A stretch of DNA of 64,000 nt from Antedon mediterranea (taxonomy: Eukaryota > Echinodermata > Crinoidea > Comatulida > Antedonidae), in the NCBI RefSeq assembly GCF_964355755.1, contig NC_092680.1, positions 21,057,001 to 21,121,000 on the forward strand, read 5' to 3'. The translations under genes and the position numbers were made by a program. Under the pieces are notes generated by a model that saw only the letters and a list, made by a program, of their open reading frames with translations, did no database searches and was not told where the DNA came from. Numbering within the stretch: the first letter of the stretch is position 1; each line of letters opens with the position of its first letter. This document shows positions 3,431 through 51,413 of this stretch, in pieces.

Positions 3431-3906
3431 AGTTATGGTGCGCTGAGCGCGTCACATTAACGATCCTCTCTACAATATTGATGTCGCGGTTGCTTTAAAT
3501 TGGTTATAAAAAAACTATGATACAAAGGTGGGGAGCTATTGTTTAAAATAAATAAATAGTATTGTTTTATTTTAAGGTAAACGACAAAGTTGATGGTGTG
3601 TGTGACGGTGGTGAATTTTTGCTAAGTGGGCCTTTCATATTGATGACGTAATTAGAAACGTCAAAACAGTTGTACACGTAGAGAGTGCACTACACACTAT
3701 TTTTATCTCCCAACCAATTCATTGTTTTTGGCAGAAGGGAAATTCCCGAACGAGGAGATTTAAGGCTGAACCAGGAGGAGGCTCACATCAGACTAGGCGT
3801 CCCTCTCTATAGTGAGCATGGAGGAGGACCTACCTATCCATCATTACGTTTTAATTTCAGGATTTAGGACCATGAACAGTATTTAATCAATCTTCGACAT
3901 CGTATA

Positions 3907-4494
3907 ATGGCATATCATTACAATGACAATAGCAGTAGGCCTAGGCCTAGGCCTAAGAAGCAGACTACTACAGACGATTTGGATGTGGATGAAGACGGTT
4001 GCCACCCCGGCCTTATTACTAGCTCTAGTGGCAATATTATTGTAGATGGTATACCTGTGCATATTGGATCTGGGAATGAAAGAAGAGAATCGAATAATAT
4101 TTACATAAGTGGTCATCCAAGTAGTGAAATTATTATAAACGGACAGCGTATTGTCGTTGCTGGAGGTGGTGGTTTTCCCAGAGCTGATCCACAAATAATT
4201 ATTGAAGATCGGATACCCGAAAGTGAAAGCATTACGTCATCAGTGGAATGTGATAATGACGTAACATCGGTTGATGGACGGTTAGAAACGTTTGAAGATT
4301 TCCCTTCTGGTTGCCCCATGTCACCTGCTCAACTCGCCCGCGCAGGTTTCTTTTACACTGGGATAGCAGACATGGTACAATGCTTTATTTGTAATGGAAA
4401 AGTGAGAGACTGGGAAATTGGAGATTCAGCGTTTGGTGAACATTTGAAGTTTTTTCCAAATTGTGAATTTGTGCACAGACAGATGGATGCATAG
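3907..4494 (+). CDS. Single-BIR domain protein, 195 aa
   Basis: A complete type of BIR zinc finger lies at residues 125-188. It has C159, C162, H179 and C186 (C-x2-C-x16-H-x6-C), the RLETF start, the ARAGF core and W169, as in IAP and survivin-type BIRs. Such domains bind caspases, IAP-antagonist tails or phospho-histone peptides. The first 120 residues are novel to me. They include two short similar strands (NIIVDGIPVHIG at 43-54 and EIIINGQRIVVAG at 74-86) and an Arg-Pro run at 11-16 encoded by the genomic TAGGCC repeat. There is no RING or CARD. A pyrimidine-rich acceptor ends at 3860, so the 5' UTR is probably spliced. An AATAAA lies near 4750. It is the first member of the BIR cluster; its partner is unknown. 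Confidence 0.8.
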   Translation: MAYHYNDNSSRPRPRPKKQTTTDDLDVDEDGCHPGLITSSSGNIIVDGIPVHIGSGNERRESNNIYISGHPSSEIIINGQRIVVAGGGGFPRADPQIIIEDRIPESESITSSVECDNDVTSVDGRLETFEDFPSGCPMSPAQLARAGFFYTGIADMVQCFICNGKVRDWEIGDSAFGEHLKFFPNCEFVHRQMDA

Positions 4495-6240: not shown

Positions 6241-6736
6241 GTATGTACTGACTCTACTTGAATACAACGTCACGTTTTCATCGGTCGTCTACATTTAAAA
6301 GGTAAGAAAGCTGTCATGGACAATGAAATTACTTAGAAATATATATATCATGACTATTATAGGCGTTGTTTAGGTCACTTAGGCCATGATCATCTGTATT
6401 TTGGAGTATCCCGTCCTACCATACATGCCCACGATTTTAGCGTAGGCCTACTAAACTCCCGTTGACGTGGCTAAGTTCTTCTTATGTTGCACGTTTTAAA
6501 TTCGCCGATATTTATAGATATTGGTCACGGGTTTGACTGATGTTTCTGAATATTAACAATCTGAAACCGTCAGTAAGTGTATGACTAATTCTTCTTAAAC
6601 TAATTTAGGCGCGCCTACTAAAAAGTTGAAACTAATTTATATTCTATAAAGCAGACCATAATAACATAATGAAGAAGAAAAATATGTCATAATTGTCTTA
6701 TAAATATTTCAACATTTTTATATATAAAGGTCAACC

Positions 6737-8395
6737 ATGCATACAGCACTTCCCGAGGATGATCTGGAGACAGACTCATTTGTGGACAATTATATAGGCG
6801 ACATAGACGGTGAATTCACACTTAGGCCTATCCAATCATACCATCACTATGATAGAAACAACTCATTGCTGCATCTCTTAAAACAACATAAATATAGGCC
6901 TACAGGTATCAACGCTAATTTAAATACTACACCAAAGAAAGAGTTCAACAAAAGATGGGGTGCCAGTACTGCAGAAGATGAAAGCTTCACAGAGCAAGAA
7001 TTGGATATGACAGCATTGTCAAATCGGCTTTCTACATATAAGTCCTTGGATAGAGGTTGTACTCTTGATGTTTCCATTTCACAGCTGGCAAAAGAAGGGA
7101 TATTTTATAAAGACAACTTGTTTTCATGTTCGTCTTGTAAATATACTATTTACGCAAACAGATATCCTAATGTTTCAGAGTTACATAAAATGGAATCTCC
7201 AAATTGTTACTACGTCAAAAAATATCCAAGAAATCCATCAATATCATACCAGTCTGAAGTAGTCGCTCCTGTTGGTTCAAGCACCCCACGTGACCAAGAA
7301 TTGGCAACTTCTAGAAGCGTATTTCAATCATCCGTTTTAAATCTGGATTTGGAAAGAAATATATGTTCGCCTCAATCTGCAAAAGTGATGGAAAAAAGTT
7401 TCGATTTGATGTCTAAAGTTACAGTTGGTCAACAAATGCCTGTCAGTGCGAGGTATATGTCTTATAAAACTGTTGAAGACGATCTCTCTCTATTGGAAAA
7501 CAGATTGAGAACCTTTCGTAACTGGCCATATCAAAAACCTGATAAACAGTCAGTTGCGAGAGCAGGATTCGTCTATAAAGGTGTTGGTGGAAACGTAAAA
7601 TGTTTTTATTGTGATTTGGTTCTTTTACTGAATCCAAATGACGACCCTTTCATTGAACACGCTAGACTGCTGTCATCATGTAGATGGTTTGAAGAAATGA
7701 AAGGAGATCGTTTCATCATTGAGTGCAAAACAAGATGTTATATTAATCAAGGTGAGACAGAATGTGGAATCCGAGATTATAGGACAAATGGAAACTCACA
7801 ACATCTACCGGAAACAACATTTGAAGAAACACCTAGAGATGAAAAGGAACAAAAAACCGTATCTAAAATCTCGGGAAGTTTGAGTCCATCTGCATATTCG
7901 AAAAAACTGAAATTGGATGCTAATGCAAAGTCTAAAATTAAACTTGCACAAGAATTTGGTTTTAATGGTGATACCATAATGGCGGTAGTAACAAAACACT
8001 TAAAAGATAACAATGGTGTTTTTTCTTTGTCAAACGAAGATATGATTGAAAAAGTTATGGATGAAGATGCTGCTAATCAAGAAATTAAGCCGAGTGCCCA
8101 TACTGAGATACCAGACCTAACAACCCTTACGTTAAATGATACAACAACTGAAAGTCTTACATCTGATACACTGAAGACGTCCAATGAGGCATCGCAATCT
8201 AAAGATGATGTTGCCAAGGAACTAGAGGATCTTAAGGACCAGCACGCGTGTAAAATATGCTTGGACCAATCTGCTAACATACTATTCAGGCCCTGTAATC
8301 ACCTGGTTACCTGCAATGAATGTTCAAAGAACATCAACATGTGTCCAGTTTGCCGAGCAGCAATTGAAGACCGGATTAAAATTTATCAAAGTTAA
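6737..8395 (+). CDS. RING-type inhibitor of apoptosis (BIR-BIR-UBA-RING), 552 aa
   Basis: This is an IAP-family E3 ubiquitin ligase. BIR1-like finger: residues 95-160 (C131, C134, H150, C157). BIR2: 253-319 (C289, C292, H308, C315, NDDPF before the His). UBA-like segment: about 397-446 (LAQEFGFNGDTI, as in XIAP/cIAP UBA). C-terminal C3HC4 RING: 505-539 (C505, C508, C520, H522, C526, C529, C536, C539) followed by the usual IAP tail. No CARD is present. Both BIRs have x15 rather than x16 between the second Cys and the His, and BIR2 lacks the Trp usually found before GDDP, so peptide binding may differ from XIAP BIR3. A 5' UTR intron is likely: donor AAAAG|GTAAG at 6302, acceptor ending 6729, start ATG just after. 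The BIR1-like finger matches the N-terminal finger of the downstream BIR-ORF1p genes. Confidence 0.9.
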   Translation: MHTALPEDDLETDSFVDNYIGDIDGEFTLRPIQSYHHYDRNNSLLHLLKQHKYRPTGINANLNTTPKKEFNKRWGASTAEDESFTEQELDMTALSNRLSTYKSLDRGCTLDVSISQLAKEGIFYKDNLFSCSSCKYTIYANRYPNVSELHKMESPNCYYVKKYPRNPSISYQSEVVAPVGSSTPRDQELATSRSVFQSSVLNLDLERNICSPQSAKVMEKSFDLMSKVTVGQQMPVSARYMSYKTVEDDLSLLENRLRTFRNWPYQKPDKQSVARAGFVYKGVGGNVKCFYCDLVLLLNPNDDPFIEHARLLSSCRWFEEMKGDRFIIECKTRCYINQGETECGIRDYRTNGNSQHLPETTFEETPRDEKEQKTVSKISGSLSPSAYSKKLKLDANAKSKIKLAQEFGFNGDTIMAVVTKHLKDNNGVFSLSNEDMIEKVMDEDAANQEIKPSAHTEIPDLTTLTLNDTTTESLTSDTLKTSNEASQSKDDVAKELEDLKDQHACKICLDQSANILFRPCNHLVTCNECSKNINMCPVCRAAIEDRIKIYQS

Positions 8396-10498: not shown

Positions 10499-11624
10499 AT
10501 GGCTACAGGAGGACAAGACGAAGTGATTTCATCATCACAGGACCTAGAAGAAAACGGATTTATTCAAATAAACAATAACTATCAGTGTTTGCATTGTAGG
10601 TTTACACTTACAGTTAAAAAAGGAAATATCAATATTAATTTCTTACGATCGTTGCATAGTTTCGAATCTCCAAAGTGTGATTTTATTTCAAAAAAGAAAA
10701 CAACACACATGGAAACGAAAACAATCCTAAGACCTCTTGCCAAAAATCCGATGTTGCGACTGAAAAAGTCAGTAAAACACGTCCACCTACACCACCTCCA
10801 AAACCTCAACATATTGCCGACAAATTCAAATCCAGGATGGAAAAAAGGTGTGAAGATTCCAGCCAACACTCGAAGCATCCAGTAATGCAGACAACATCTG
10901 ACTCAAAATCGAATCCAGTATTGCAGACAAGATGCAACACAATTGGAAATGAACACAATCCTAAAACAGCTGACTCAAAGTCGAATGTTGCGATTGAAAA
11001 AGACCGTAATAAAACAGATGCCATGAAAATAAAAGGAACACGTCAACCAACACCACCTCCAAAACCTCCACATTTCCAAACACTAGAATCCGATATTACA
11101 ACAACACGTCAAAGTAAATCCGAATATGAGCGACACTGTTATCATCAAGTGAAGTTAAATAATATTAATTATGGTGTCGTAAACAATAACATTGCACTTG
11201 ATAAAAATAGTTATGTTAAAGAAAGGTAGGTCTACAGCAGAATGCAGGGTATAGACATTCTAAACAAACATGGCTTAAAATGGAAGCAAGGGTAAATGCT
11301 CTCTCACAACAATTAGGAAGAATGACATTGGAACTGAACAAAAAAGACAAAATAATAGAAAATCTTCAAAATGATTTATTGAAGTTAAGACGATCGAGAC
11401 GCCGTAACGTTAGAGGTAAAACTAGGGACACAAAAAACAAAGACAGACCAAGTAAATTACAAAGAAAACAAAGCGTGTTACAGCTCGCTAAGATTAGTAA
11501 CAAGAAATCGAAGGCTGTAAGAGAAAAGAAGAAATACAGAAGAAAAGTTGTTATGGCAAAAACAAATGCGTCTGATGAAGTTGATGTACTCAATGATGGG
11601 GAAACAGTACTATGGATATCATGA
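10499..11624 (+). pseudogene. Decayed BIR-ORF1p copy
   Basis: Three successive frames carry pieces of the fusion gene. 10499-10885 encodes the N-terminal BIR-like finger (CLHC, then FESPKC), followed by drift into a stop. From 10837 another frame carries the linker (SKSN, PPPKPP repeats), ending at 11229. From 11280 a third frame carries the coiled coil (KDKIIENLQNDLLKL) followed by scrambled sequence where the RRM should be. The second BIR and the RRM/CTD are missing. An acceptor (ATAG, 10371-10372) precedes the ATG, but the matching upstream donor is mutated. Frameshifts plus donor loss indicate a pseudogene. Short peptides could still be made from the first frame (128 aa with a possibly intact Zn finger). 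Confidence 0.75.
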
Positions 11625-12663
11625 ATAAACAAAACATCATGCTGCCTAACTCGGAAAAACCAGCATAACAATTCAAAGTAATGTACAATTCAATTAATCA
11701 AATAAACCGTACTGTCGGAATAACTATATTTTTACTAATACTATTATTTTTAGTTTAGATTGTCAGACTCTGAAGCATTAGAAATGTAATGATAACAAAA
11801 CCAGCCTAAAATAAACAACAATTTGGTTTATTCAATTGTTAAACAACAATTTAGATTTTTTAAGGGGTGGCGGGAATGATTAATTTAGCATAATATTAGG
11901 TTTGATAACAATTGAATTGAACAAATGAATCTTAACATTAATTATGAATGAAAATGTTGTTGGTGATGGGGCACTATGTAAATGCAGAACAATCTCTTTC
12001 AAGTTTTATGTACAGATCACTCCGTAAACAATAAAACATATTCCTGGTGTCACTGAGGGTTTCTGTTTAATTTTATTTTGTGTGAACGCTAAAACACAAT
12101 AGTCGTAGAATACTATAATATTGATATAAGCGTCACGTGATTATTCATAGCAAATCAGAGCGTCATAATCGATCACTTAGAACTAACAATAACGATTATT
12201 GATCAATATTCTGAAGGTTATTATTGCCACATCACAATACTCTATATTACATCACGGTGATAGGTCCAACTTGGTAAGTAGGATTATTTTATTATTAATT
12301 CAGTTATATATATATATTCATTCAATATTCATCCCCCACCACCTATATATTGTTAATGAAAAATCATTCAACTTAAAAGGCCTATGCTATACGTCCGGCT
12401 AGCTTGGGATTTCCAAAATCCGAACGCTTGGGTGAAGTCTAGACATCTCTGTCGTTTGCCAAATCAACGGTATCCAGATGGAAACATCATGTAGATATTT
12501 GATAGAAATTCTAGAATACATGCAGTTACCACTTGCCATTGGTCACTAACAAATTTGTTTAGCAACGGGTTACACTCAAATGGCGTATGCATGTGGTAGT
12601 TTCACAGGACGTATATACAAACTCATTGTCCACTTTTTTTTACAACTATAGGCATTAATCAAT
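11625..12663. promoter_or_regulatory. Upstream region and 5' UTR intron of the BIR-ORF1p gene
   Basis: A probable 5' UTR exon ends at ACTTG|GTAAGTA (donor GT at 12274). The intron runs to a strong acceptor (CCACTTTTTTTTACAACTATAG, ending 12651), 12 bases before the ATG. A block (TTTCCAAAATCC) near 12410 recurs near 15113 at a comparable place before the third copy, so the non-coding upstream DNA was duplicated too. No other gene is seen. AATAAA at about 11701 could serve the decayed copy. Confidence 0.55.
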
Positions 12664-14034
12664 ATGGCAACATCGGCAGATCTAGGTAAAGAAACAGTGA
12701 TTTCACCACAGGAACTGGCAAGAATTGGATGTAGTCTCGATCTCAGAAACAATGAACTTCGATGTTTGCATTGTGATTTTACAGTCAAAAAAAGAAGTTT
12801 TCCAATTTATTTAAAGTTGCATAGGCACGGATCTCCAAACTGTGATTTCAATATTGGAAACAACACAATTGCAAATGAACAACATCCCAGCACCTCTGAC
12901 CTAACATTCCATTCCAGGATCTTGCCTAAGGACGAGAAATGTGTAACACCGCGTATAAACATGGAATCTACAAGTGCACGACCTCACAAATATCCAGTAG
13001 GCCTAATTCAGACAACAGCTCAATCAAATAATAACGAAGAATTAAGTATGAAAAGCACCAAAACAACAGCATTGGAATTGGAAACAGAAGATGACCGGAT
13101 GGTTAGTTTTTCCGGTTGGCCACACAGAAAACCAAACAAATGGGAAGTTTCAATGGCAGGATTCTCTTTCCTGGGTGTTGGTGATAGGGTCAAATGTTTT
13201 TCATGCGGTTTTACAAAAGATTCATGGAAACCAACTGATGATCCTTTTTATGAACATGCAAAAACTGGAGAGTGTTCATGGCTTATAGAAAATAAGGAAA
13301 GGAGTTTAATTACAACATGTCAACGAAAGTACCAATTAGAGCAGCAGCAGAATTGTCTTCAAAAAGATATTAATAAAAACACTAACAGTTTGGGCAACAA
13401 AATAAACATTTCTGAATTGATGACTGCTAACAAGCTAGATTACAAAGATAACATAAATGCGGTTAAAAGCAAGGTACAGAATACTGAGTATGAACAGGCT
13501 AAACAAACTGATTCATCATTGCTTAAAATTGAGAAGAAAGTAGAGGCTCTTGCGCCACGAATAGAAATCATGGAACTTGAATTAAAAGAAAAAGATAAAA
13601 CAATAACAGATCTGCAAAACGATTTACTGAAGTACGAGAGACGATCAAGAAGTAGTAACTTGAGATTTGGAGGTGTAATCGAGGACAGAAACGAAAACAC
13701 ACTACATAAATTGCAAGGACTAATACGAAGTGTATTACACCTCGACGACATTGAAATTGAGAAGGCGCAGAGAGTTGGTAAAAAGGTATCTGGAAATCCA
13801 CGACACATTATTGCAACATTTAAGGATATACATCAGATGAATACCGTTTTCAGAAAATCAAAATCTTTAAAAAGCGGTAGGTTTCACGTAATGGAAGATT
13901 TGGCACCAACAGACATGAGGGAAAAGCAGAGATTAAAAGATGTTATGGATAAAGCATATGAGGCTGGATATCACCCTGAATTCCGCCGTGATGGTATACT
14001 ATACATCAATGGCAAACCATACGATCCCGAGTAA
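12664..14034 (+). CDS. BIR-BIR-LINE ORF1p fusion protein, 456 aa
   Basis: Intact single coding exon; ATG in good context (AATATGG) 12 bases after a strong splice acceptor. N-terminal BIR-like finger: residues 14-61 (C34, C37, H53, C60). Full BIR: 143-218 (C178, C181, W188, H198, C204; ending in x5 before the last Cys). Then a coiled coil of about 284-330, an RRM of about 331-405 starting ERRSRSSNLRFGG with the AQRVGKK and PRHIIATF signatures, and a C-terminal domain of 406-452 ending ILYINGKPY. The last three parts are the architecture of L1-type ORF1p (Pfam Transposase_22 and its neighbours), a trimeric RNA-binding chaperone. No reverse transcriptase follows, so this is not a complete LINE. 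I infer a host gene joining IAP-type peptide binding to an RNA-binding trimer. RING and CARD are absent. Confidence 0.85.
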   Translation: MATSADLGKETVISPQELARIGCSLDLRNNELRCLHCDFTVKKRSFPIYLKLHRHGSPNCDFNIGNNTIANEQHPSTSDLTFHSRILPKDEKCVTPRINMESTSARPHKYPVGLIQTTAQSNNNEELSMKSTKTTALELETEDDRMVSFSGWPHRKPNKWEVSMAGFSFLGVGDRVKCFSCGFTKDSWKPTDDPFYEHAKTGECSWLIENKERSLITTCQRKYQLEQQQNCLQKDINKNTNSLGNKINISELMTANKLDYKDNINAVKSKVQNTEYEQAKQTDSSLLKIEKKVEALAPRIEIMELELKEKDKTITDLQNDLLKYERRSRSSNLRFGGVIEDRNENTLHKLQGLIRSVLHLDDIEIEKAQRVGKKVSGNPRHIIATFKDIHQMNTVFRKSKSLKSGRFHVMEDLAPTDMREKQRLKDVMDKAYEAGYHPEFRRDGILYINGKPYDPE

Positions 14035-15361
14035 TTACAGCCTGTCATAACTATACTGTTAATTATTATACTGTTAATTTATTATAGGCCCACTTAGTAT
14101 ACAAATAATTTAGATTTATTATGTAAGCATATCCTTTGTTTTTAATGTGAATATGTTTTTTTACAATTTGATTCTCTATTTGACTTTCCTTTAATTAAAT
14201 GCATAATTCGTGTACCTTTTGGACAACTAGACGTAAACAGATATAGGTTTAAATGTTAATACTTCAAATATTGTTGGTAAACTATTCGAACATAAACAAA
14301 CCAGATGAATTCTGTATTAAAGGAAACACAGTTTTAGGTAATGGAGGATTAAGGACTTGGCACCAGCAGTAGTTAGAGGAACGTAGAAGACACATATTAG
14401 GGAGCTTCGATTATAACTGGATGGTATTCGAATTGAGCATGCGCATAGGGTTAGGTAGGCTACATTATTTACATTTATAACATTATATTATTTACAAACG
14501 CAACGGTAATTAATTGTGTAGTACCGGTGTGCTGGCGCCTTTTCTATGCATGATTAATACGTTTAAAATGTGTATGAAATCCACATAGGCCTACATTATA
14601 AACTTAATCAAGTACGAATGAATGTAACGTTTCCGTCGTATTTATACTTTGTACACATGAGAAGCGTATGAACGGCATAACAGTGGTGGTACAAATATCT
14701 GATAATATAGACCCCGTATAGACCACTAATAAAACTAAAGGTTTCTATTCAAATAATCCTTTTGTTCAACAGTAGAAAATGTATTTGAAAAATGAACTCG
14801 TCATTCAACAATTTATTATTCAAGCACCGGATGGTTTTGTTGTCACGTGTTTAATCGTACCAAATGCACAGGATAGAATATTAAAGGAAGACAATTTGGC
14901 GTAACATAGTGTAAATAATTGTCGCATTCTAATAACTGAATAAGCTACAGAATCTCAGAGATACAAATTGGTAAGTTTGTCATATAATCATTATCAATAA
15001 CTTTCTATGGATCCTATTACGTCCTCTACGGGTGTTTTTCACTGAAAATCGATTATAACAAAAATACTATTCACTACAAGAATAGAAAAATGTTTCAATG
15101 TAAATTGGAATTTCCAAAATCCAGAGGCTTTATGACGTGTTGAGATAGAGAGGCCCTAAATTTCCAAAGTGCATGAGGCATAATCGGAATTTTGCAAAAC
15201 AACAGCATAAAAATAAAATATTGAAAGTAAATTTTGCATTTAATTCTAGTTTCAACCGTCCCGTACACATTCTGAATAGGCCTACAGTACTTGGGTTTGT
15301 TCTAGCCTAATATTTGACAGTCAAGAAGAAAATACTTCCAGTTACATAAATTGGGTGAAGT
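14035..15361. promoter_or_regulatory. Spacer and 5' UTR intron of the third BIR-ORF1p copy
   Basis: Contains AATAAA near 14728 for the preceding gene. A donor AAATTG|GTAAGTTT at 14971 and acceptors ending 15320 (TTTGACAG) or 15341 (TACTTCCAG) would give a 5' UTR intron like that of its neighbour. No reverse transcriptase, endonuclease or long terminal repeat is present between the two fusion genes. Confidence 0.5.
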
Positions 15362-16981
15362 ATGGCAACATCCGCAGGCACAGTGATTTCACAGCAGGAA
15401 CTGGCAAAAAATGGATTTACTCAGAGAAACAATGAACTTCATTGTTTGTATTGTAATTTTACAGTAAAAAAAGGAAAATTTTCAATTTATCGAATGTTGC
15501 ATAAACACGAATCTCCAGACTGTGGTACACAAAGAGAGAACACATTGAGAAATGAACAAACAACAAACACCAAACCAGGTACAATGAAAGTGAAAAAAAC
15601 AGGTCCACCTATACCTCAGAAACCACAAAGATACAAACAGAATGTCCAAATTGACCAATCCCATCTCTTGCCTAAGACCGACATCAGTGTAAGGCTGGAA
15701 AACAAAAGCGAACGACCTCACTCAAGAAATGTTAGGCCTACAATAATAAATACAAATCTTCCAATGTACTCAAAGCTGTATAGACATGAATCGTCTGATG
15801 AGAGTGGGAGGGCTATCATTTCAAACGCTAGAGCGAACAAGCTTACTGAAAATGTACAAAAACCAAGCACATCCTATTCAAAATCAAATTATGGGACTAA
15901 AAAAGAGAGTACCGAAACCATGAATGTGAAACAAACAACTCCATGCCCGTCTGCTGTACGTCCAAAACAACGCAAGAGAAACAAACAGAATGTCCAAATA
16001 ATCCAATCACATCTCATCCCAAGACCGCGTGTTATGCTGGAAAATACAAGCGAACGACCTCACAAATATCCAGTTGTAGGCCTAATTCAGACAGCAGCTA
16101 AATCAAATAATAACGATGACTTCAGTAAAAACAACGCATCGTATGCACAGCGTGTACCTTCCAAAGCATTGGAATTTGAAGATGAACGGATGAGGAGTTT
16201 TTTACGTGGGCCACACAGAAAACCATGTCTTATAGAAAATAAGGAAAGGAGTTTTATTACAACCTGTGAGTTCCAATTGGAGCAGCAGCAGAGCTGTCTT
16301 CAAAAAGTGAAGTTAGATATTAACAAAAACAAAAATTGGGGCGAAAAAAGAAACATTTCTGAATTGATGACTTCTAACAAGCTAGATTACAAAGATAACA
16401 TAAATGCGGTTAAAAGCAAGGTACAGAATACCGAGTATGAACAGTCTAAACAAATCGATTCGTCATGGCTTAAAATTGAGAAGAAAGTAGATCTTTCACC
16501 ACAAATAGAAGACATGGCACTTCAATTGAAAGAAAAAGACCAAGCAATAACAGATCTGCAAAACGATTTATTGAAGTTAGAGAGACGGTCGAGAAGTCGT
16601 AACTTGAGATTTGGAGGTATAGGTGAAGACAGAAACGAAGACACACTAAGTAAATTACAAGGTCTAATACGAAGGGAATTGCGCCTCGATGGTATTAAAA
16701 TTGACCATGCGCATAGGGTTGGTAAAAAGGTATCTGGAAGTCCACGACACATTATTGCAACATTTAAGGACATACGTCAGATGAATACAGTTTTAACGAA
16801 AACAAAGGCTTTAAAATGCGACTGGTTTTACGCAAAGGAAGACTTGGCGCCAGCCGACCTGAGAGAAAAGCAAAAATATAAAAATATTATGGCTAAAGCA
16901 TATGCGGCTGGACATCACCCTTCATTCCGTGATGGAGTATTATACATTGATGGCAAACCCTACTTCGGAGATCTCGAGTAA
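15362..16981 (+). CDS. BIR-LINE ORF1p fusion paralogue lacking the second BIR core, 539 aa
   Basis: Paralogue of the 456-aa gene. N-terminal BIR-like finger: residues 8-55 (C28, C31, H47, C54). A longer basic, Pro-rich linker contains an internal duplication: the block NVQIDQSHLLP...SERPH (94-120) recurs as NVQIIQSHLIP...SERPH (210-234), and the finger tail (MLHKHESPDC) recurs as KLYRHESSDES near 138-148 without its last Cys. Where the full BIR should be, an in-frame deletion equal to 48 residues joins HRKP directly to CLIENKERS (about 288), so no zinc ligands remain. The coiled coil (365-410), RRM (411-488, AHRVGKK, PRHIIATF) and C-terminal domain (489-534, VLYIDGKPY) are intact. The reading frame survives both rearrangements, which argues for function. 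Confidence 0.8.
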   Translation: MATSAGTVISQQELAKNGFTQRNNELHCLYCNFTVKKGKFSIYRMLHKHESPDCGTQRENTLRNEQTTNTKPGTMKVKKTGPPIPQKPQRYKQNVQIDQSHLLPKTDISVRLENKSERPHSRNVRPTIINTNLPMYSKLYRHESSDESGRAIISNARANKLTENVQKPSTSYSKSNYGTKKESTETMNVKQTTPCPSAVRPKQRKRNKQNVQIIQSHLIPRPRVMLENTSERPHKYPVVGLIQTAAKSNNNDDFSKNNASYAQRVPSKALEFEDERMRSFLRGPHRKPCLIENKERSFITTCEFQLEQQQSCLQKVKLDINKNKNWGEKRNISELMTSNKLDYKDNINAVKSKVQNTEYEQSKQIDSSWLKIEKKVDLSPQIEDMALQLKEKDQAITDLQNDLLKLERRSRSRNLRFGGIGEDRNEDTLSKLQGLIRRELRLDGIKIDHAHRVGKKVSGSPRHIIATFKDIRQMNTVLTKTKALKCDWFYAKEDLAPADLREKQKYKNIMAKAYAAGHHPSFRDGVLYIDGKPYFGDLE

Positions 16982-29641: not shown

Positions 29642-32600
29642 TTATGATTCATCATCGTCATCATCTTCATCATCTCTTGCCATCTGATCATGTTTTGTAC
29701 CATACATGGTCAACAAATCAACAATAGCATTCATTATCTTCCCTTCTTTTACGGTATTGCTCCAATTGGTCAACCCCGGACAGGTTATCTTTTTTTCCAA
29801 CAGTTTGTCTAATTCTTTACGGAGATCCTACGAAAAAAAAACAAATTAATCCAAAAGTTTTGATTTTTTATTTTTTAAAAATCATGCATGCAGTAGTACA
29901 GTTATCCAACACAATGATCGAAAGCTCTGTCTACACTGGGCACATCACACTTTTTTTGTCAAACTAATCTGATAGTGTAGACAGAGCTTACAGCAATGTT
30001 CCACAAACTATGAATGTTGTACACAATGAATGAATATTTATGAGCATTAGGACATTATAAAGTCTTAAGCTCTGTCTACACTATTAAACTAGTTTGAAAA
30101 GTGTGATGTGCCCAAATATGGTAGTGAAATGACATCATCATGTCCATATATGGGCACATCACATTTTTTTGTCACACTAGTTTGATGGTGCGGACAGAGC
30201 ATAAGTCAATAAACTTATGGAAGTAAGTTTATGGTTTATTTTACATCAACATTTTCATTTTTACACTCGTGCTAAACAGCGCATAGAGACTATTTGTATT
30301 TTGCGCTATATAAATTTAAAACCATTAAACCATTAAAACCATTAAACCATTAAAACCTTTAAACCAATACTGACCTTAACAATAGCTGCAATGCTTTCTT
30401 GTGACCTAAAAGTAATTTGATTGTCTACGGATATGATCTCAAGTCCATCGTCATCAACTCCAACGTGGAGATCACCGCCAAAGAATAGTAAAGGGTACGG
30501 CTCTACTATTGTGGTATCGTGTAGGTACACCTTGAAAGAAGTAACAAAATTAGTTTTAAATATTATCAAATTCTTTAAAACGGTTTTATTGGAATATGTA
30601 TTGTTTATGTATCATATTTATTGTTATTAGGAGTGTTCTGTAAGTGTAAGTGAAATAAACAACCTAAAGAAATAAGGGATTGTAATGTGATATTTTAAGC
30701 AAAACAAAGTTTTAAATGGTGGTGTAACGCAGCGAGCAAAGGCCGCTGATTTAGCACTCCTAAAGGGCCATCCAATGCTGGATTGGGGCTGCTAATGCTC
30801 TGGGCCCCTTAAGTTCTGGGGCGTCTACATTTAGCTGGTGAGCACTCATAGCCGTTGAAAACAAACATTATTTCTTTCATTTTTATCTTCCTTAGAGGGA
30901 ATACCATGTACATACAAATGCGTTTGTTGACTTACCCCGGTTGATTTCATTTTCAAGTGATACAATAGGTAACTGCTTGCAAAGTTTGTCTCCTTTGAGT
31001 TGATGGACTTTGGGTGTATTTCCACTTTGCCATCTTGTTTGGTATAGCACTTTACACTAAAAACAGATAATATTGTAGAACTTCTTATTTAGGACAACCG
31101 TGTTTTAGCACCATATGCAGTGTAAACCTCAATACAGGGGAAACCCCTATTTAACAGACACCCTTGTTAAGAGCACACTTTTTAGTAATACGAATGTTTG
31201 TTTTAGCCCTATGGCCAATCCATCCTCAAGGTACTGCATCTCCTTAATGAGGGTACTACTGTATTAAACTGTTTTACTCTACAAGAAGCATGTTTCAAAC
31301 AGTACCATAGTAATATTGGCCAGAAAATTGTCCGATTCGATACGAAAGGTAAACGAAAAACTGACATAAAAAATATGTAGACCCTAAGTCTGATTATTTT
31401 AAGAGTAATAATTTTCTATTTCTTACCGAGAAATTTGCTTCTTCTTTGAGAATCTTGATTTCACTTGCGCAACATTAGGATACAGTCCAGCGCACAGGAC
31501 GGCCTTTATCAGCTGCTCATTGTCTAATAGAAAAAACAAATATACAGATTTACATAGGAAGTAATGAAAAACTACCATAGCTTAATTCTTGATCAAACTT
31601 ATACACTTTCTGATGTCTTTCTTAACCTTTGTCTACACTATCAAACTAGTTTGACAAAAACAGTGTGATGTACCTAAATATGGTAGTGATATGACCAAAT
31701 ATGGTAGTGATATGACCAAATATGGTAGTGATATGACCAAATATAGTAGTGATACAAAATCATCATGTCCTTATATTTATTTGTCGCATAAAGTTTGATA
31801 GTGTAGACAGAGCTTTATAGACAAGTATTGTGGTTTGCAAAGTGATTTACCCGAGTGAATATTAGCCTCATCCTGTTTACAGCTCTTATTAAGTACAAAA
31901 CCAATGTTACACAACAGCTCACAAAACTGTGTTTTCATGTTATCCAACATCTAAAAGAATAAATATGGATATAGATATAGATATACAGTATATAGAGAGC
32001 TTTGAAAACAATTCATATGCAACCATTACAGCAAAATTATTATTTTTTTTTATTAGAGGCTTAGGGAGTGTAGTAGAAAGAGAGAACCCTAGACCTTGGG
32101 ATTGGCAAACACCACCACGCTACCAGCTCCACAAAAATGTGCATGTTGTATACAGTAGTGTGCTTTTATTTGTATGCTGTATATGTGTGATCTTATTTGT
32201 ATGTTGTATGAGTTCTTTTATTTGTAAGTTGTATGTGTTCATTTATTTGTATACTGTCTGTGTTCATTTAATTGTATGTTGTATGTGTTCATTTATTTGT
32301 ATGTTGTATGTGTTCATTTATTTGTATGTTGTATGAGTTCATTTATTTGTATGTTGTATGTGTTCATTTATTTGTATACTGTCTGTGTTCATTTAATTGT
32401 ATGTTGTATGAGTTCATTTATTTGTATACTGTATGTGTTCATTTATTTGTATGTTGTATGTGTTCATTTATTTGTATACTGTATGTGTTCATTTATTTGT
32501 AAGTTGTATGAGTTCATTTATTTGTATACTGTATGTGTTCATTTATTTGTATGTTGTATGAGTTCATTTATTTGTATACTGTATGTGTTCATTTATTTGT

Positions 32601-35600
32601 ATGTTGTATGTGTTCATTTATTTGTATGCTGTATGTGTTCATTTATTTGTATGTTGTATGAGTTCATTTATTTGTATACTGTATGTGTTCATTTATTTGT
32701 ATGTTGTATGAGTTCATTTATTTGTATACTGTATGTGTTCATTTATTTGTATGTTGTATGAGTTCATTTATTTGTATACTGTATGTGTTCATTTATTTGT
32801 ATGTTGTATGAGTTCTTTTATTTGTAAGTTGTATGAGTTCTTTTATTTGTATGTTGTATGAGTTCTTTTATTTGTAAGTTGTATGTGTTCATTTATTTGT
32901 ATGTTGTATGTGTTCATTTATTTGTATGTTGTATGTGTTCATTTATTTGTATACTGTATGTGTTCATTTATTTGTATGTTGTATGTGTTCATTTATTTGT
33001 ATGTTGTATGAGTTCTTTTATTTGTATGTTGTATGAGTTCTTTTATTTGTAAGTTGTATGTGTTCATTTATTTGTATGTTGTATGTGTTCATTTATTTGT
33101 ATGTTGTATGAGTTCATTTATTTGTATACTGTATGTGTTCATTTATTTGTATGTTGTATGAGTTCATTTATTTGTATGTTGTATGTGTTCATTTATTTGT
33201 ATGTTGTATGAGTTCATTTATTTGTATACTGTATGTGTTCATTTATTTGTATGTTGTATGAGTTCATTTATTTGTATGTTGTATGTGTTCATTTATTTGT
33301 ATGTTGTATGAGTTCATTTATTTGTATACTGTATGAGTTCATTTATTTGTATGTTGTATGTGTTCATTTATTTGTAAGTTGTATGTGTTCATTTATTTGT
33401 ATGTTGTATGTGTTCATTTATTTGTATGTTGTATGAGTTCATTTATTTGTATACTGTATGTGTTCATTTATTTGTATGTTGTATGTGTTCATTTATTTGT
33501 ATGTTGTATGAGTTCATTTATTTGTATACTGTATGTGTTCATTTATTTGTATGTTGTATGTGTTCATTTATTTGTATACTGTATGTGTTCATTTATTTGT
33601 ATGCTGTATGTGTTCATTTATTTGTAAGTTGTATGAGTTCATTTATTTGTATACTGTATGTGTTCATTTATTTGTATGTTGTATGAGTTCATTTATTTGT
33701 ATACTGTATGTGTTCATTTATTTGTATGTTGTATGAGTTCATTTATTTGTATACTGTATGTGTTCATTTATTTGTATGCTGTATGTGTTCATTTATTTGT
33801 AAGTTGTATGAGTTCATTTATTTGTATACTGTATGTGTTCATTTATTTGTATGTTGTATGTGTTCATTTATTTGTATGCTGTATGTGTTCATTTATTTAT
33901 ATACTGTATGTGTTCATTTATTTGTATGTTGTATGAGTTCCTTTATTTGTATACTGTATGTGTTCATTTATTTGTATGTTGTATGTGTTCATTTATTTGT
34001 ATGTTGTATGTGTTCATTTATTTGTATACTGTATGTGTTCATTTATTTGTATACTGTATGTGTTCATTTATTTGTATGTTGTATGAGTTCATTTATTTGT
34101 ATACTGTATGTGTTCATTTATTTGTATGCTGTATGTGTTCATTTATTTGTAAGTTGTATGAGTTCATTTATTTGTATACTGTATGTGTTCATTTATTTGT
34201 ATGTTGTATGTGTTCATTTATTTGTATGCTGTATGTGTTCATTTATTTATATACTGTATGTGTTCATTTATTTGTATGTTGTATGAGTTCCTTTATTTGT
34301 ATACTGTATGTGTTCATTTATTTGTATGCTGTATGTGTTCATTTATTTGTATACTGTATGTGTTCATTTATTTGTATGTTGTATGAGTTCATTTATTTGT
34401 ATGTTGTATGTGTTCATTTATTTGTATACTGTATGTGTTCATTTATTTGTATACTGTATGAGTTCATTTATTTGTATGTTGTATGTGTTCATTTATTTGT
34501 ATACTGTATGTGTTCATTTATTTGTATGTTGTATGTGTTCATTTATTTGTAAGTAGTATGAGTTCATTTATTTGTATACTGTATGTGTTCATTTATTTGT
34601 ATGTTGTATGTGTTCATTTATTTGTATGTTGTATGTGTTCATTTATTTGTATACTGTATGTGTTCATTTATTTGTAAGTTGTATGTGTTCATTTATTTGT
34701 ATACTGTATGTGTTCATTTATTTATATACTGTATGTGTTCATTTATTTGTATGTTGTATGTGTTCATTTATTTGTATACTGTATGAGTTCATTTATTTGT
34801 ATACTGTATGTGTTCATTTATTTGTATACTGTATGTGTTCTTTTATTTGTATGTTGTATGTGTTCATTTATTTGTATACTGTATGTGTTCATTTATTTGT
34901 ATACTGTATGTGTTCATTTATTTGTAAGTTGTATGAGTTCATTTATTTGTATGTTGTATGAGTTCATTTATTTGTATGTTGTATGTGTTCATTTATTTGT
35001 ATGTTGTATGTGTTCATTTATTTGTATGTTGTATGTGTTCATTTATTTGTATGTTGTATGTGTTCATTTATTTGTATACTGTATGTGTTCATTTATTTGT
35101 ATGTTTTATGTGTTCATTTATTTGTATGTTTTATGAGTTCATTTATTTGTATGTTGTATGTGTTCATTTATTTGTATGTTTTATGAGTTCATTTATTTGT
35201 ATGCTGTATGTGTTCTTTTGTTTGTATGCTGTGATTTTATTTTTAAGTTGTATATGTGTGATTTTATTTGTGTGCTTGCCTTACCTTTAAAGAATTCATG
35301 GACATAAAGTTATTCCAACAGTACGCCCTCTCAGCATTGGAACCCGTTGCACGTGCCTCTTCCCAACCACGGAATGCATACACCATCATCAAATGATCAC
35401 TTTTAGATTCATAAGACAACTTCACTTTCTGGGCATCTGCCTCCTTTTCTTTACCCTAGCATTAAAATCAGAACACACTAGTAACACAGCCAACAATATC
35501 ATACAACTTTGACAGATATGGATTAGTAATGAGAACAATGAATATTTAATATTATATAAAGCTTATTACGATACACTTACCAGTGGAATAAAAAATGGAT

Positions 35601-38600
35601 CTTTGAAGCTGAGAGAAGCAGCGATTGTAAGAATCGGATCCAGACAGCAAAACATTGCTCCAAAAAGGATTAGGCGACCGATTCTTGGCTGGACGGGGAG
35701 TCTAGCAAGATGGTAACCAAGTGAGGTCAAATTCTCCGTCTCATCAAGGGCATTCTTTAAATCAAAATAAAATTATAATTTGTTGTTATCATTATATAAA
35801 TAAAATACTGTAATAATTAATATAAACCAATAATAGTTGAAATATTAGCAAATACTAAGTAAAATACTAAGTACTGTTTTTACCATTTGTTTTAGAGCAG
35901 TCAGAGCTAATTCAACTGAACGATCTTCAGGTTTATCCATGGCTTTGTCTAGAAAATTCCTCACAAGCCCAAGTTTCAAGGTCTGCATTAAGCATAAAAA
36001 GAGAAAAACAAATGCATTCAAGTATGGCAAATGTAATGAAGTTGTTGACTAAACTCAATCAAATTCATGCTTTGAGAAAATCCATTTATTAATTACAGTA
36101 CTTCGCCCCAATTAGTGTTGATGAGCGTAATCAGGATCTTTAAAAATGGGAAGCCCTAACTGGGAGTTAACTTCATTGAGGCTTTCAAAGGGGAGAGGTG
36201 TGCGCACTTAGTGCTACCTTCCTGAATCTGCTTGGTAAACATAAAAATAAAAGGACACATTTTATGTTGTTCCAAGCAGCACACATAAACATTCAAGTAA
36301 TTGTACTCTGCTTCTTGCCTTGATCTGTAAAGCAACTTCTTCCAAAGGCGTCCTTTGCATTTCTGGCAACTGGTAATCCGTCATCAGACTATGACGTAGT
36401 GTGGAGTACAGATGATAACATTCACCGGGTTGAACCCTTCCTGCTCTACCCCTCCGCTGTTTAGCAGCTGCCAGACTAGTCCATTCTGGTTGTAGGGTAC
36501 TAATATTGTTCTTGACATCAAAATTCTTTTCTTTAACTTTACCAGCGTTTATGACAAACACCACGTCTTCAATAGTGATACTCGTTTCTGCAATATTCGT
36601 TGCTATTATAATTTTGCGGACACCTTTTGGTGGTTTTTGAAACACCTGTGTTGATATGTAAAAATAGAAAACAGATCAAAAACATGGTAGATTAAAATAC
36701 ATTAAAATTAGTTAGCTCTGTCTACACTATCAAACTAGTTTGAGAAAAAAAGTGTGATGAGCCCAAATATGGTAGTGATATGACATCATCGTGTCCATAT
36801 ATGGGCACATCACATTTTTTCATAAAGTGTACTCTAATAAATGTAAATAAACACATACAAATGTGTTATATTTAGAATGTTATGAAATGCTTACATCAGA
36901 ACATTTAAGATACTGGCTGCTGCAGTAACTGCAGTATACTAATGTTGACATAGTCCCTGAGTATCTTACCTCATGCACCCATATATGGACATGATGATGT
37001 CATATCACTACCATATTTAAGCATATCACTACCATATTTGGGCACATTACACTTTGATAGTGTAGACAGTGCCTTACCTCATGCTGGTTGACTGTAGGCA
37101 TCATTGAATGTAAAGGAATAATACGATAGTCTCTTGACTTAAACATTCGTTGAGTCATCAATTTGTCATTCAATTTACTTATCTGATCCCAACCAGGAAG
37201 AAATACTAAAATAGCTCCATCCTATTAATTGAATAAAACAATGTAAATTTATTTTATTTGTACTTGAATGTTTTAAAAAGATTTACTATACAACAGAACC
37301 CCTTACCAAGGTGGATACACAGGTCCCAAAAAGTGTCCCCTGAATAGGGGTTATCCGTAGTGGTAAAACATATACTTCACCTTGTACATTTGGGAAGTGT
37401 TTTTATGTAATAGGAGTGTCCCCTAAAAAGGGGTTATCCGTAGTGATAAAACATATACTTCACCTTGTACATTTGGAAAGTGTTTTTATGTAATAGGAGT
37501 GTCCCCTAAAAAGGGGTTATCCGTAGTGGTAAAACATATACTTCCCCTTGTACTTTAGGGAAGTGTTTTTATGTAATAGGAGTGTCCCCTGAATAAGGGT
37601 TATCCGTAGTGGTAAAACATATACTTCACCTTGTACATTTGGAAAGTGTTTTTATGTAATAGGAGTGTCCCCTGAAAAGGGGTTATCCGTAGTGGTAAAA
37701 CATATACTTCACCTTGTACTTTAGGGAAGTGTTTTTATGTAATAGGAGTGTCCCCTGAATAAGGGTTATCCGTAGTGGTAAAACATATACTTCCCCTTGT
37801 ACGTTTCATAGGAAAGTGTTTTTATGTAATAGGAGTGTCTTCTGAATAGAGGTGTCCCAAAGTAGGGGTATCACTGTATGGTATTCAGTATATTATTAAC
37901 TGTAGTATTTGTGGAATTTATTCATTATCTTGTATCTAAAGTCTACACCTACTGTACATTTCATTTCATCTTTAATTCAGAATAATTTACATTCATTTAT
38001 TTACACATTAGAAACTGTTGTAATATACTAATCCTTTTTTCGCACTTGGATACAAATAAGTATATATAGTTTAATGAACTTACGCCTTTCTCTCGCACAA
38101 TGTATAAAATGGTTTGCAGTATCATGTTGTAATCTATAATATCATGGTCCATATGCATAAGGCTGTTGACTGTCTCCTCATCATTTCTAAATAGCAACAC
38201 AAAACAAACAAATGTATAAAACTTTACACTATCTATATTTTACTACTATATATATCTTTAATTAAACAAGTGGAAATAACTACAATACAATCATAATGTG
38301 CCATAGTTGTATTCGTAAAATGAAATATTTGAAATAATTATGACAATTATTTATATTTTTACATTAGCTAATGCTACAGTATGTCATGGAGTTGTTTATT
38401 TGTCTTTTTTCTAGTTAGGTGTGGTATAAGACAAGTTCTTTTACTTCTAATTTCGATCCCTGAAAGAGTTTCTATTATTGGATCATTTAATTTACTATAA
38501 ATTCTTGTTATTTTTGGACTGTTTCAAACAATACTGTTTCCACAACAAAATGGATGAAGAAAGTCTACATATATTCTCTTATTTTATGAAAATGTATAAA

Positions 38601-41600
38601 ATTGAAACCTATCTGTTGAGGAAAATAATATAGTATAAACACACAAATAAGAACTTATTATATTTCACTTGTTATATTAGTGTTACTTTACGGCTGTGAG
38701 ACATGGAAAATAACAGAAGGGGACAACAAGAAACTTGACACATTTAAATTTAAATGTTTGCGAAGAATATTGAAGATTAGATGGCCATATACCATTTCAA
38801 ATATTGACATATTAATCAAAACCAACATGAGAAGCAGAATAAGCGATGAAGTGGATTGGACATGTGTTACGAATAGAGGATTACAGCTTTAACATGGTGT
38901 CCTGAAGGAAGGAGAAAAGTTTGACATCCAAAAACAATGTGGAGACGGACAGTAAAAAAAGAGAGAACAGAGTTAGGATGGAAATCATGAAACCTAGCCA
39001 AGCCTGTGGCCAGGGACCGGATGCGTTGGCGGAGGAATCTTGCAGCTATGGGCCAAAGGGCTTGAAGAGGATAAGTGAGTTGAGGTGAGACAAATAAGAA
39101 CTTACAGTTTTCGTTGTTGATCTATATATTCATCAAACATTTCCTGGTACTCCTGTTGCTTTTTCATTTCTTCTTCTCGTACTTGACGTCCTTTACGAAA
39201 TTTGACCCAAACAGGCTCAAACCGTTTGGCCTTCTCCGGAGGAAAGTATCTAATCATTAATCAAAGGCAAATTTTATTTTAATTAACAATATTAGCAAAA
39301 AGAGAAACAGTTTTTAATTTTAATCATTTCTTTTTTTTTAATATTATTTAGGCAAATTTCCAAGAATAACCATAAGCGAAATAATTCACTATCAATATCA
39401 ATCCTGTTCACAAGACAAACATACACAAGATGTTCTACATAAACAAAGTCTTATTACAAGTATTTGGGAGTGGAGTTATAATCCTTAGATTGGAAGCCTA
39501 GCATCTTAACCGTCAAGCCACAACTCCACTTTATCATGAATTGTAAAACAAGTAAATGTATTGTACCTAGTAAGTTTCAGCACATCCTCAAGGAAATATT
39601 CTTGTACTGGAAATGTGAATCCTGGAATATTTAACATAGGACAATTTCCAAAATACTCTGAAAACTTGCTTGCGTTCAATGTTGCACTCATCAAGATAAG
39701 CTTCAAATTGGGCCTAGAACACAGAAAATGTGAAAATACAAAATGTGAACACAGAAAATGTGAACAACACACAAAATGTGAACAACACACAAAATGTGAA
39801 CAACAAACTAAGTGTGAACACACAAAACGTGAACACAGAAAATGTGAACACACAAAACGTGAACACAGAAAATGTGAACAACACACAAAATGTGAACACA
39901 CAAAACGTGAACACAGAAAATGTGAACAACACACAAAATGTAAAAACAGAAAATGTGAACACACAAACTATGAACACAGAAAATGTGAACACAGAAAATG
40001 TGAACACAGAAAATGTGAACAAAGAAAATGTGAACACAGAAAAGGTGAACACAGAAAATGTGAAAACAGAAAAGGTGAACACAGAAAAGGTGAACACAGA
40101 AAATGTGAACACAGAAAATGTGAACACAGAAAATGTGAACCCACAAACTGTGAACAACACACGAAATGTGAACAAAGAAAATGTGAACACACAAAATGTA
40201 AACACACAAAATGTGAACACAGAAAATGTGAACACAGAAAATGACAACACACAAAATATAAACACACAATACCAGACATGTTATCATACTATAAAGCAGT
40301 TCCGACAAATGTTGTGCTTTAAAGTCATTCAAAATTTGTGGTGGACTGAACATTTTTTTTTTAATTCTAAATTCTTCAAGTAGTATTAGGAAATGTATAT
40401 ATATTGTATCCTATGTAAAAAATGGCCCATGGACTTTTTCTTTAGATTTAATAAAAACAATATTGTGCTTACCGTTTAGGAAGGATATCTCTTAACATGA
40501 TAAGAAGAAAGTCAGAGAGAACATCACGTTCATGAATTTCATCTAGTATCACATGACTTGTACTATGCAAATCACTGGAATAAAAAAGAATGTCTTTACT
40601 ATTTTTGGTTTATACCAAGATAATAACTTTGAACAAAAAACAGCTGTCAACCAGCAACTAAAAGAAAATTGAATTCAACTGAAAGAAACACTATAAGCAA
40701 TCTATAAACTTTAGCAAATTTAGTAATTTGGAAAATTTTCTATTTGATGCATTAATAAGCTCTCAACCAGATTGACCCGCTTAGGGAAACACGACCAGAA
40801 TGAAAATCGCAGGTATGTGCTCTTGTACTTTAAAAAAGGGTAGCATGATTCTTTTCTTGCATGGCGTTGGCAAAGCAAATTCGCGTAATGGAAAAAAAGG
40901 CTTTAAATATCCAAAATCAAATGTCATATAACTTGTGCCTGTTTTGCGTATCTACAAATTTCAGCTCCAAATTATAGTGCTAGGTATTTTGTCAGTTACT
41001 TTGAAGGAACGAAAAAGTGTTCTTTTTAAAATTGAGTTTAATTCCGTTTAAAGATGTATTGACCCATGATTAATTCCAAAAAAATAAAAAATTAAAGATT
41101 TTGGAAAAAAGGTGGGTCATTTTGAAGTATCATAATAGTTATTAACTTTCACTAAAAATTAGTCGAAAAAAAATCATTTAACTAAAATACAGATGTTTTT
41201 TTCTCACTTTACTGCCAGTCAAGGTTTTCGATCAAAACATATCCCATAATGCAACGCGCTTGTGTGGCTACTCTGTATGCATAATCATAAAACTTCCTCA
41301 CGATCTGTGTAAAAAAATACCTTCTCAACCATGACGAGTTGTAAACAATCATAATTAGCATATCATGCATGCATACTCGTGAAACCTTTGTTTACTTTCG
41401 CTCGCGAAGATTTTCTCGACAAAATGTAATCAAATTAATTTCCCTTATAATTACGTAAACTTGTTGTTTTTTAAGTTTGAAGTTCGAAGTTAAAGTGAAT
41501 AACTTTAATATTACTTTGATATGGCCTATTTAAATTCAGAATATTTCGACCTTCATTTTCAAGGAACAATACATCTTTAAATACTAACCTGTCACATTCC

Positions 41601-51330: not shown

Positions 51331-51413
51331 GAATCGCAAAACGGTATAACATTTGTAAATCTGAAATGATAAATAAAACAGTTTTGATAACAATAGCCTA
51401 TAAATAAATTATA

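What the first reader, a model, noticed from the sequence alone, without database searches (positions are those of the whole stretch)
12664..14034. IAP-type BIR domains fused in one frame to a LINE-1 ORF1p-like RNA-binding module
Seen: one uninterrupted 456-codon frame with a BIR-like finger, a canonical BIR (C178, C181, W188, H198, C204), a coiled coil, an RRM beginning ERRSRSSNLRFGG and a C-terminal domain ending ILYINGKPY. Known: coiled coil-RRM-CTD is the structure of L1-type ORF1p, and BIR domains bind caspases or N-terminal tetrapeptides. Inference: a host gene, or a retroelement ORF1 that captured BIRs, makes a trimeric RNA-binding protein displaying six BIR-type fingers. Possible roles include transposon restraint, RNA-triggered cell-death control, or LINE-encoded anti-apoptosis. 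I know of no described protein with this architecture.
Basis: partly seen in the sequence, partly recalled or inferred. Interest (0 to 1): 0.95.

Follow-up and report, generated by a model that had tools for sequence, protein, structure and literature searches.

The report
IAP zinc fingers fused to LINE ORF1p
In this animal genome an anti-apoptosis-type gene has been joined to the RNA-packaging protein of a jumping gene, and the joined gene has been kept intact and duplicated in tandem, which suggests that the host has put it to use.

Summary
Window 12664-14034 is one open 456-codon frame. Its N-terminal half (to about residue 240) is homologous to the intact IAP gene at 6728-8395: a degenerate BIR plus a Pfam-significant BIR (E 5.1e-18). 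From about residue 230 on it is an L1-type ORF1p (coiled coil, RRM, CTD) related to ORF1s of multi-copy LINEs of the same genome; a profile of that family matches human L1 ORF1p (E 2.6e-11). The evidence favours a host gene: a tandem paralogue (15362-16981) with similar upstream DNA and the same apparent splice donor; a broken third copy (10499-11624); no ORF2 match nearby; no second BIR-ORF1 fusion seen in the genome searches. Between the paralogues dN/dS is 0.24 across the junction and first part of the coiled coil, 0.42 for the ORF1 part, but about 1 or more in finger and linker; the paralogue has lost the second BIR. Best reading: a domesticated, probably trimeric, RNA-binding LINE ORF1p with IAP-derived fingers, acting on retroelement or other RNA-protein particles, comparable to mammalian L1TD1. 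Caspase control is less likely: the groove tryptophan is absent, as in the neighbouring IAP. Expression and function are untested, and AlphaFold models were too poor to test the RRM.

The parts
12664..14034 (+). Gene B: 456-aa BIR-ORF1p fusion protein
   Evidence: open frame
12763..12843 (+). N-terminal degenerate BIR finger (C34, C37, H53 or H55, C60)
   Evidence: alignment with first finger of the IAP at 6728-8395 and pattern scan
13096..13281 (+). Second BIR (residues 145-206), H-x5-C, W188 kept
   Evidence: Pfam PF00653 E 5.1e-18
13345..13389 (+). Approximate junction between IAP-derived and LINE-derived parts (residues 228-242)
   Evidence: IAP homology runs to residue 242; LINE ORF1 matches start at residue 216 or later
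13408..13653 (+). Predicted coiled coil (residues 249-330) with RhxxhE motif at residues 299-304 (13558-13575)
   Evidence: single long helix in a low-confidence model; motif scan
13636..14022 (+). L1-type RRM and CTD (residues 325-453)
   Evidence: blastp to LINE ORF1 copies, up to about 51%; family profile match to human L1 ORF1p
12274..12651 (+). Possible 5' UTR intron; donor TTG|GTAAGT shared with gene C (GT at 14971)
   Evidence: sequence and upstream alignment
15362..16981 (+). Gene C: 539-aa tandem paralogue, finger + long linker + ORF1p; core of second BIR missing (48 codons, in frame)
10499..11624 (+). Copy A: broken paralogue (finger, repeated linker, coiled-coil and RRM-start remnants in three frames)
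14417..14457 (+). ORF1 fragment similar to 16685-16724 (87.8% over 41 bp), perhaps a remnant of a further duplication
   Evidence: blastn self-comparison
6728..8395 (+). Intact IAP gene (BIR-like, BIR, RING), relative of the N-terminal half
   Evidence: Pfam; tblastn 27% over 263 positions, E 4.1e-24
3868..4494 (+). Another BIR-encoding ORF of the cluster
   Evidence: Pfam BIR E 2e-22

Best explanation
This is a host gene family born when a duplicated IAP gene lost its RING-bearing end and gained, after the second BIR, almost the whole ORF1 of a LINE (probably of the L2/CR1 kind, judged from its Tnp22 ORF1; I did not place its ORF2 in a tree). SHOWN: one frame; IAP homology up to about residue 240; LINE ORF1 homology from about residue 230; tandem copies with similar upstream DNA; frames kept open in two copies; purifying selection across the junction, in the first part of the coiled coil and in RRM plus CTD (one pair of sequences). 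INFERRED: the protein trimerises through the coiled coil, binds RNA through RRM/CTD, and carries IAP-type zinc fingers at its free ends. Most likely job: it joins or competes with LINE ribonucleoprotein particles (or other RNA) and uses the N-terminal fingers to recruit a host partner, as a retroelement-control factor of the L1TD1 / domesticated-gag sort. Rough odds by step: fusion real 0.98; host gene under selection 0.85; RNA-binding oligomer 0.75; acts on retroelement RNPs 0.4.
For:: one frame, significant BIR; besides the window's own genes, about 90 listed matches over contigs C1-C11 all fall in residues 216-455; best-scoring LINE copy 48% identical, short ones up to 52%; two such copies (L001, L003) lie upstream of ORF2 sequence with RT (E 4.1e-35, 6.5e-36; L003's is broken over frames); family profile to human L1 ORF1p E 2.6e-11. 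B versus C dN/dS 0.24 (1000 bootstraps, 95% 0.10-0.55) for residues 207-285 spanning the junction, 0.42 (0.26-0.68) for 231-453, against 1.11 and 1.44 for finger and linker; with 5, 10 or 14% random substitutions a frame stays open in 117, 3 and 0 of 2000 runs (B) and 44, 2 and 1 of 2000 (C). B keeps an RhxxhE motif in the same column as one LINE group; 20 of 21 LINE rows have at least one before the RRM; similar upstream DNA, same splice donor in B and C; the N-terminal part was found only at this locus. PMC4161310 (abstract; Discussion, part 1 of 2): L1TD1 as the precedent.
Against: No transcript was available. dN/dS rests on one pair; a pair with one constrained and one free copy could give about 0.5; the whole-protein value is 0.65 (0.49-0.89), and residues 286-326 of the coiled coil give 0.69 (0.20-3.1), not distinguishable from 1. 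As a control, nine pairs of LINE copies gave 0.32-1.6 in the 8 that were computable, on few changes, so values under 0.5 occur there too. Copy A is broken; C lacks the second BIR and the RhxxhE motif. B and C lie 2.7 or more changes per column from every one of 21 LINE rows, so co-assembly with present-day LINE ORF1p is doubtful. L1TD1 promotes rather than restrains L1 in one recent study (PMC11925450, abstract). RNA and zinc binding could not be tested. The RhxxhE count had no chance control.
Confidence: 0.5

Rival explanations
1. A LINE whose ORF1 captured BIR domains (as other L2/CR1 LINEs carry a PHD finger beside a Tnp22 ORF1), now represented by immobile copies; it would encode anti-apoptosis for the element.
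For: LINE ORF1s with an added zinc-binding PHD plus Tnp22 are known (PMC4120745, section 6, Table 1), so the design is possible; LINEs with this kind of ORF1 are present in many copies here.
Against: ORF2 queries from L001 and L003 match the 64-kb window only as weak RT traces at 48.7-49.9 kb (E up to 0.01). 1 of 37 listed BIR matches is in an ORF1 frame (by eye). The copies with the N-terminal part found all lie in this cluster, and A, B and C have similar upstream DNA.
Confidence: 0.07
2. An IAP-type regulator in which the ORF1p part is only an oligomerisation scaffold and the BIRs still bind caspases or IAP-binding-motif peptides: RNA-independent, or RNA-triggered, cell-death control.
For: The second BIR is Pfam-significant and keeps W188 and the acidic stretch DDPFYEHAK; it lies in a cluster with other BIR genes, one with a RING.
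Against: The W of HAKWFPxC, which lines the peptide groove (role recalled), is absent and one residue is missing (H-x5-C); the W is also absent in the neighbouring IAP and present in only 2 of 13 fingers scanned there, so its absence is not special to the fusion. Gene C lacks this BIR yet stays open and constrained elsewhere; finger dN/dS 1.11 (0.59-2.8) gives no sign of constraint; no RING found.
Confidence: 0.2
3. A chance chimera that is decaying: formed by LINE insertion, duplicated as part of an unstable IAP cluster, with no function.
For: One of three copies is broken; large changes among copies; N-terminal part without visible constraint.
Against: Two long frames without a stop after about 0.3 synonymous changes per site, improbable without selection; low dN/dS across the junction.
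Confidence: 0.12
4. A host RNA-binding protein used for ordinary mRNA or germline granules, unrelated to retroelements, the ORF1p part having been co-opted only for RNA chaperoning. (It shares its anatomy with the best explanation; the odds overlap.)
For: Long stem (1.88 changes per column) between B/C and LINE ORF1s, with core motifs kept (B 41 and C 43 of 60 LINE-conserved columns).
Against: No direct evidence either way; tandem turnover and a free N-terminal part fit conflict genes better (judgement).
Confidence: 0.2

Closest known systems
L1TD1 (mammalian gene domesticated from LINE-1 ORF1)
   Same: host gene made from an L1-type ORF1p, with fast change and repeated loss (PMC4161310, abstract and Discussion part 1 of 2 read)
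   Different: here the source LINE is not L1 but one with an L2/CR1-style Tnp22 ORF1 (clade not tested), the ORF1p is fused to IAP zinc fingers, and the genes form a tandem family
Type II (Tnp22) ORF1 of L2/CR1-lineage LINEs
   Same: coiled coil, RRM and CTD, top match to 2yko in the paper and to 2ykp/2yko here (PMC4120745 sections 6 and 14 read); such LINEs are present in this genome
   Different: no ORF2 match downstream, not dispersed, BIR fingers instead of the short LINE N-terminus or a PHD finger
IAP genes with BIR, BIR and RING (for example the neighbour at 6728-8395)
   Same: N-terminal half is homologous to about residue 242
   Different: C-terminal part including RING replaced by ORF1p; second BIR altered
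Bivalve IAP genes carrying retrotransposition domains
   Same: IAP genes with retroelement domains in translated ORFs are reported in oysters and scallop (PMC8917759, section 6 and passages read)
   Different: that section names LTR/non-LTR, RT and Tc1 domains; it does not name an ORF1p in frame with a BIR, nor a selection test

Membership tests
L1-type (type II, Tnp22) ORF1p | sequence homology of RRM and CTD to L1 ORF1p | tested here: met
   family profile E 2.6e-11 to 2ykp, 7.1e-7 to isolated RRM 2w7a; single-sequence hmmscan of this protein gave no PF02994 hit
L1-type (type II, Tnp22) ORF1p | coiled coil before the RRM, trimerising | tested here: inconclusive
   82-residue helix predicted (model mean pLDDT 39.9); one RhxxhE in B's coil, none in C; oligomer state not tested
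L1-type (type II, Tnp22) ORF1p | RRM fold | tested here: inconclusive
   model pLDDT under 50 over the RRM with only 2 sequences
LINE retrotransposon | ORF2 with endonuclease and RT downstream | tested here: not met
   two ORF2 queries match the window only weakly at 48.7-49.9 kb
LINE retrotransposon | dispersed copies of the same element | tested here: not met
   N-terminal part found only in this cluster, 5 matches at E up to 10 (the tool may miss weak matches)
IAP (BIR) protein | BIR domain homology above the Pfam cut-off | tested here: met
   65.8 bits against cut-off 22.9
IAP (BIR) protein | Zn-ligand spacing CX2CX16HX6C (recalled consensus) | tested here: not met
   x2, x16, x5 in the second BIR; zinc binding itself not tested
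IAP (BIR) protein | IBM/caspase groove tryptophan in HAKWFPxC (role recalled) | tested here: not met
   HAKTGEC in B; 2 of 13 scanned fingers have it, the neighbouring IAP does not
IAP E3 ligase | C-terminal RING | tested here: not met
   no RING match in B or C
Domesticated ORF1p gene (L1TD1 kind) | host-type locus under purifying selection | tested here: met
   dN/dS 0.42 (0.26-0.68) for ORF1 part, tandem, similar upstream DNA; one pair only
Domesticated ORF1p gene (L1TD1 kind) | expression as a host mRNA | not testable with these tools
   no RNA data; shared splice donor only

The most novel reading that the evidence does not exclude
An independent domestication of a LINE ORF1p outside mammals that turned an apoptosis regulator into an RNA-guided oligomer: retroelement or viral RNA nucleates trimers and higher assemblies, which cluster the IAP fingers and so couple detection of foreign RNPs to a cell-death or ubiquitin pathway.
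Probability: 0.15. Interest if true: 0.9.

Novelty: new variant of a known kind. Interest (0 to 1): 0.62.

Why it matters
[quoted passage not shown] An independent case, made from another kind of LINE, joined to IAP fingers, and held under selection in tandem copies, would show that ORF1p domestication recurs. It would also offer a natural test of what such proteins do: one paralogue with the second BIR, one without.

Tried and rejected
Direct Pfam and NCBIfam scans did not identify the ORF1 part of this protein; many coiled-coil families appear among the 97 families and are not informative. Two viral-contig scans (profile and protein) found no relatives. AlphaFold on window-only alignments of two rows gave mean pLDDT 49.8 and 39.9, so I made no fold search. 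I thought of a crinoid from a recalled chromosome number only; a paper search did not settle it. The 16,073-aa open frame listed at C2 runs into a stretch of N. Downstream flanks of B and C show no similarity above shuffles (109 of 200 reach the score), and the IAP's upstream DNA is not clearly like B's (34 of 200); these shuffles keep base composition only. A DNA-level alignment of B and C misplaced the linker and BIR: 7 of its 18 gaps are not multiples of three, all at columns 357-882; the 4 gaps beyond column 1000 are all multiples of three. I take the missing BIR from blastn and the protein alignment instead. Of nine paper searches, six bear on a BIR-ORF1p gene and their listings showed no report of one. 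This is not proof of absence: the library lacks most subscription journals and I read only parts of six papers.

Full report
What is there. Window 12664-14034 is one open frame of 456 codons. hmmscan finds BIR at residues 145-206, E 5.1e-18, and nothing significant in the C-terminal half. An N-terminal finger (C34, C37, H53 or H55, C60) lines up with the first finger of the neighbouring IAP gene at 6728-8395, which also has a second BIR and a RING. tblastn joins the IAP and the finding over 263 aligned positions, residues 4-242 of the finding, 27% identity, E 4.1e-24.

The C-terminal half. Searching the whole genome with the protein gives 94 listed matches (336 candidates, 93 scored; the tool calls such counts lower bounds). 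Three of them reach into the N-terminal half: the gene itself, the neighbouring IAP and gene C's linker. The rest start at residue 207 or later and, gene C apart, are spread over contigs C1-C11; the best-scoring is 48% identical, short ones reach 52%. I fetched 23 such loci for comparison. Three were taken with wide flanks: L001 and L003 carry ORF2 sequence with reverse transcriptase (E 4.1e-35 and 6.5e-36; L003's is broken over frames), while L002 lies beside gag-like ORFs and showed no ORF2 in the stretch. Twenty more were cut short. Of the 23, 21 entered the alignment; L008 (no frame of 120 codons matched) and L027 (a different C-terminus) were left out; a 24th, L028, was fetched later only to explain a long open frame, which is a run of N. 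The profile of 23 rows (21 LINE, 2 window) matches human L1 ORF1p 2ykp, E 2.6e-11, and the isolated RRM 2w7a, E 7.1e-7; the many weaker matches below are mostly coiled coils, but the RRM match cannot be that artefact. In print, L2- and CR1-lineage LINEs with a Tnp22 (type II) ORF1 are described, some with an added PHD finger (PMC4120745, sections 6 and 14 read). I did not place the ORF2s here in a tree, so 'L2/CR1-like' rests on the ORF1 type and recall.

A tandem family. A paralogue at 15362-16981 (539 aa) shares the finger and the ORF1 part (76% identical over 242 columns), has a longer linker, and lacks 48 codons of the second BIR in frame. A third copy at 10499-11624 is broken over three frames, and a 41-bp ORF1-like fragment lies at 14417-14457. 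Local alignment of the 600 bases upstream gives scores of 72 (B-C), 92 (B-A) and 50 (A-C), none reached in 200 base-composition shuffles, while the downstream flanks show nothing. B and C share the donor TTG|GTAAGT; A does not have it at the aligned place (by eye). A search with gene C's N-terminal 288 residues finds 5 matches at E up to 10, all in this cluster. Of 37 BIR matches listed for the genome, only the one in gene B lies in an ORF1 frame, and by eye no other outside this cluster lies within 200 kb of a listed ORF1 match.

Selection. Nei-Gojobori dN/dS between B and C: 0.24 for residues 207-285, which contain the junction and the first part of the coiled coil (bootstrap 0.10-0.55); 0.69 for 286-326 (0.20-3.1); 0.41 for RRM plus CTD (0.22-0.76); 0.42 for 231-453 (0.26-0.68); 1.11 for the finger (0.59-2.8); 1.44 for the linker (0.90-2.6); 0.65 for all 396 aligned codons (0.49-0.89). 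With 5, 10 and 14% random substitutions a frame without stop survives in 117, 3 and 0 of 2000 runs for B and 44, 2 and 1 for C. As a control, nine pairs of LINE copies give 0.32 to 1.6 in the 8 computable cases, on few changes. The low value across the junction is the best evidence that the two halves are made as one protein. The limit: it is one pair of sequences, and two of the eight control pairs lie under 0.5.

What the anatomy says. The RRM/CTD core motifs are kept: B matches 41 and C 43 of 60 columns conserved among LINE rows. B keeps one RhxxhE trimerisation motif (residues 299-304) in the column where one LINE group has it; 20 of 21 LINE rows have at least one such motif before the RRM, and C has none (no chance control). 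The motif's role is described in PMC5940361 (passages read). AlphaFold, with only the two window rows, gives a single helix 249-330 and a C-terminal helix-hairpin, but no confident RRM. The second BIR has H-x5-C and lacks the groove tryptophan, which 2 of the 13 fingers scanned have; the neighbouring IAP lacks it too, so this is not a loss peculiar to the fusion. Peptide or caspase binding is therefore doubtful, and gene C does without this BIR.

Mechanism. Most likely the protein is an RNA-binding oligomer made from LINE ORF1p whose free-changing finger region faces a partner. Fast change, loss of copies and renewal are what led to the genome-defence proposal for L1TD1 (PMC4161310, abstract and Discussion part 1 of 2 read); tandem copies and IAP fingers are not part of that case. 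[quoted passage not shown] I therefore prefer retroelement RNP control, without being sure of its sign, at about 0.4; ordinary RNA chaperoning and cell-death control are the main rivals, and the odds given overlap.

Novelty. Domesticated ORF1p is a known kind with one well-studied case. IAP genes with retroelement domains are reported in bivalves (PMC8917759, section 6 and passages read), and IAP expansion by retroposition too (PMC7831173, passages read). I found no report of BIR joined to ORF1p in the searches. Hence: new variant of a known kind.

Noticed in passing
L004 2836-5975 (G000:C3:17076500-17085500) and L005 (C9:14168500-14174500): A repeated block with near-identical IAP ORFs in the two copies fetched (482 and 486 aa; in L004 three BIRs, RING, UBA match under the cut-off), a kinase-like ORF (Pkinase E 3.8e-05, under Pfam's cut-off) and other ORFs; BIR matches with like scores lie at six places on C3, C4 and C9. 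Looks like a large mobile or endogenous DNA-virus-like element carrying an IAP; described only.
   Followed up: partly
window 31893-35136: Long array of short repeats with open frames translating as VHLFVYCM-like units.
   Followed up: no
window 39506-40410: Second repeat array with open frames on both strands; the minus-strand ORF 39506-39967 continues into a helicase-like piece ([16 protein letters not shown]), and another helicase-like ORF lies at 36262-36675 (judged by eye).
   Followed up: no
window 48556-49877: Weak reverse-transcriptase traces of a LINE (25-33% identity), some 31 kb from the fusion genes.
   Followed up: no
window 50149-51408, minus strand: Intact-looking sulfotransferase gene (Sulfotransfer_1 E 1.5e-27).
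   Followed up: no
L007 424-2019 minus (G000:C1:20802000-20804800): IAP in a single long ORF (two BIRs, RING, UBA match under the cut-off) elsewhere in the genome, possibly a retrocopy.
   Followed up: no
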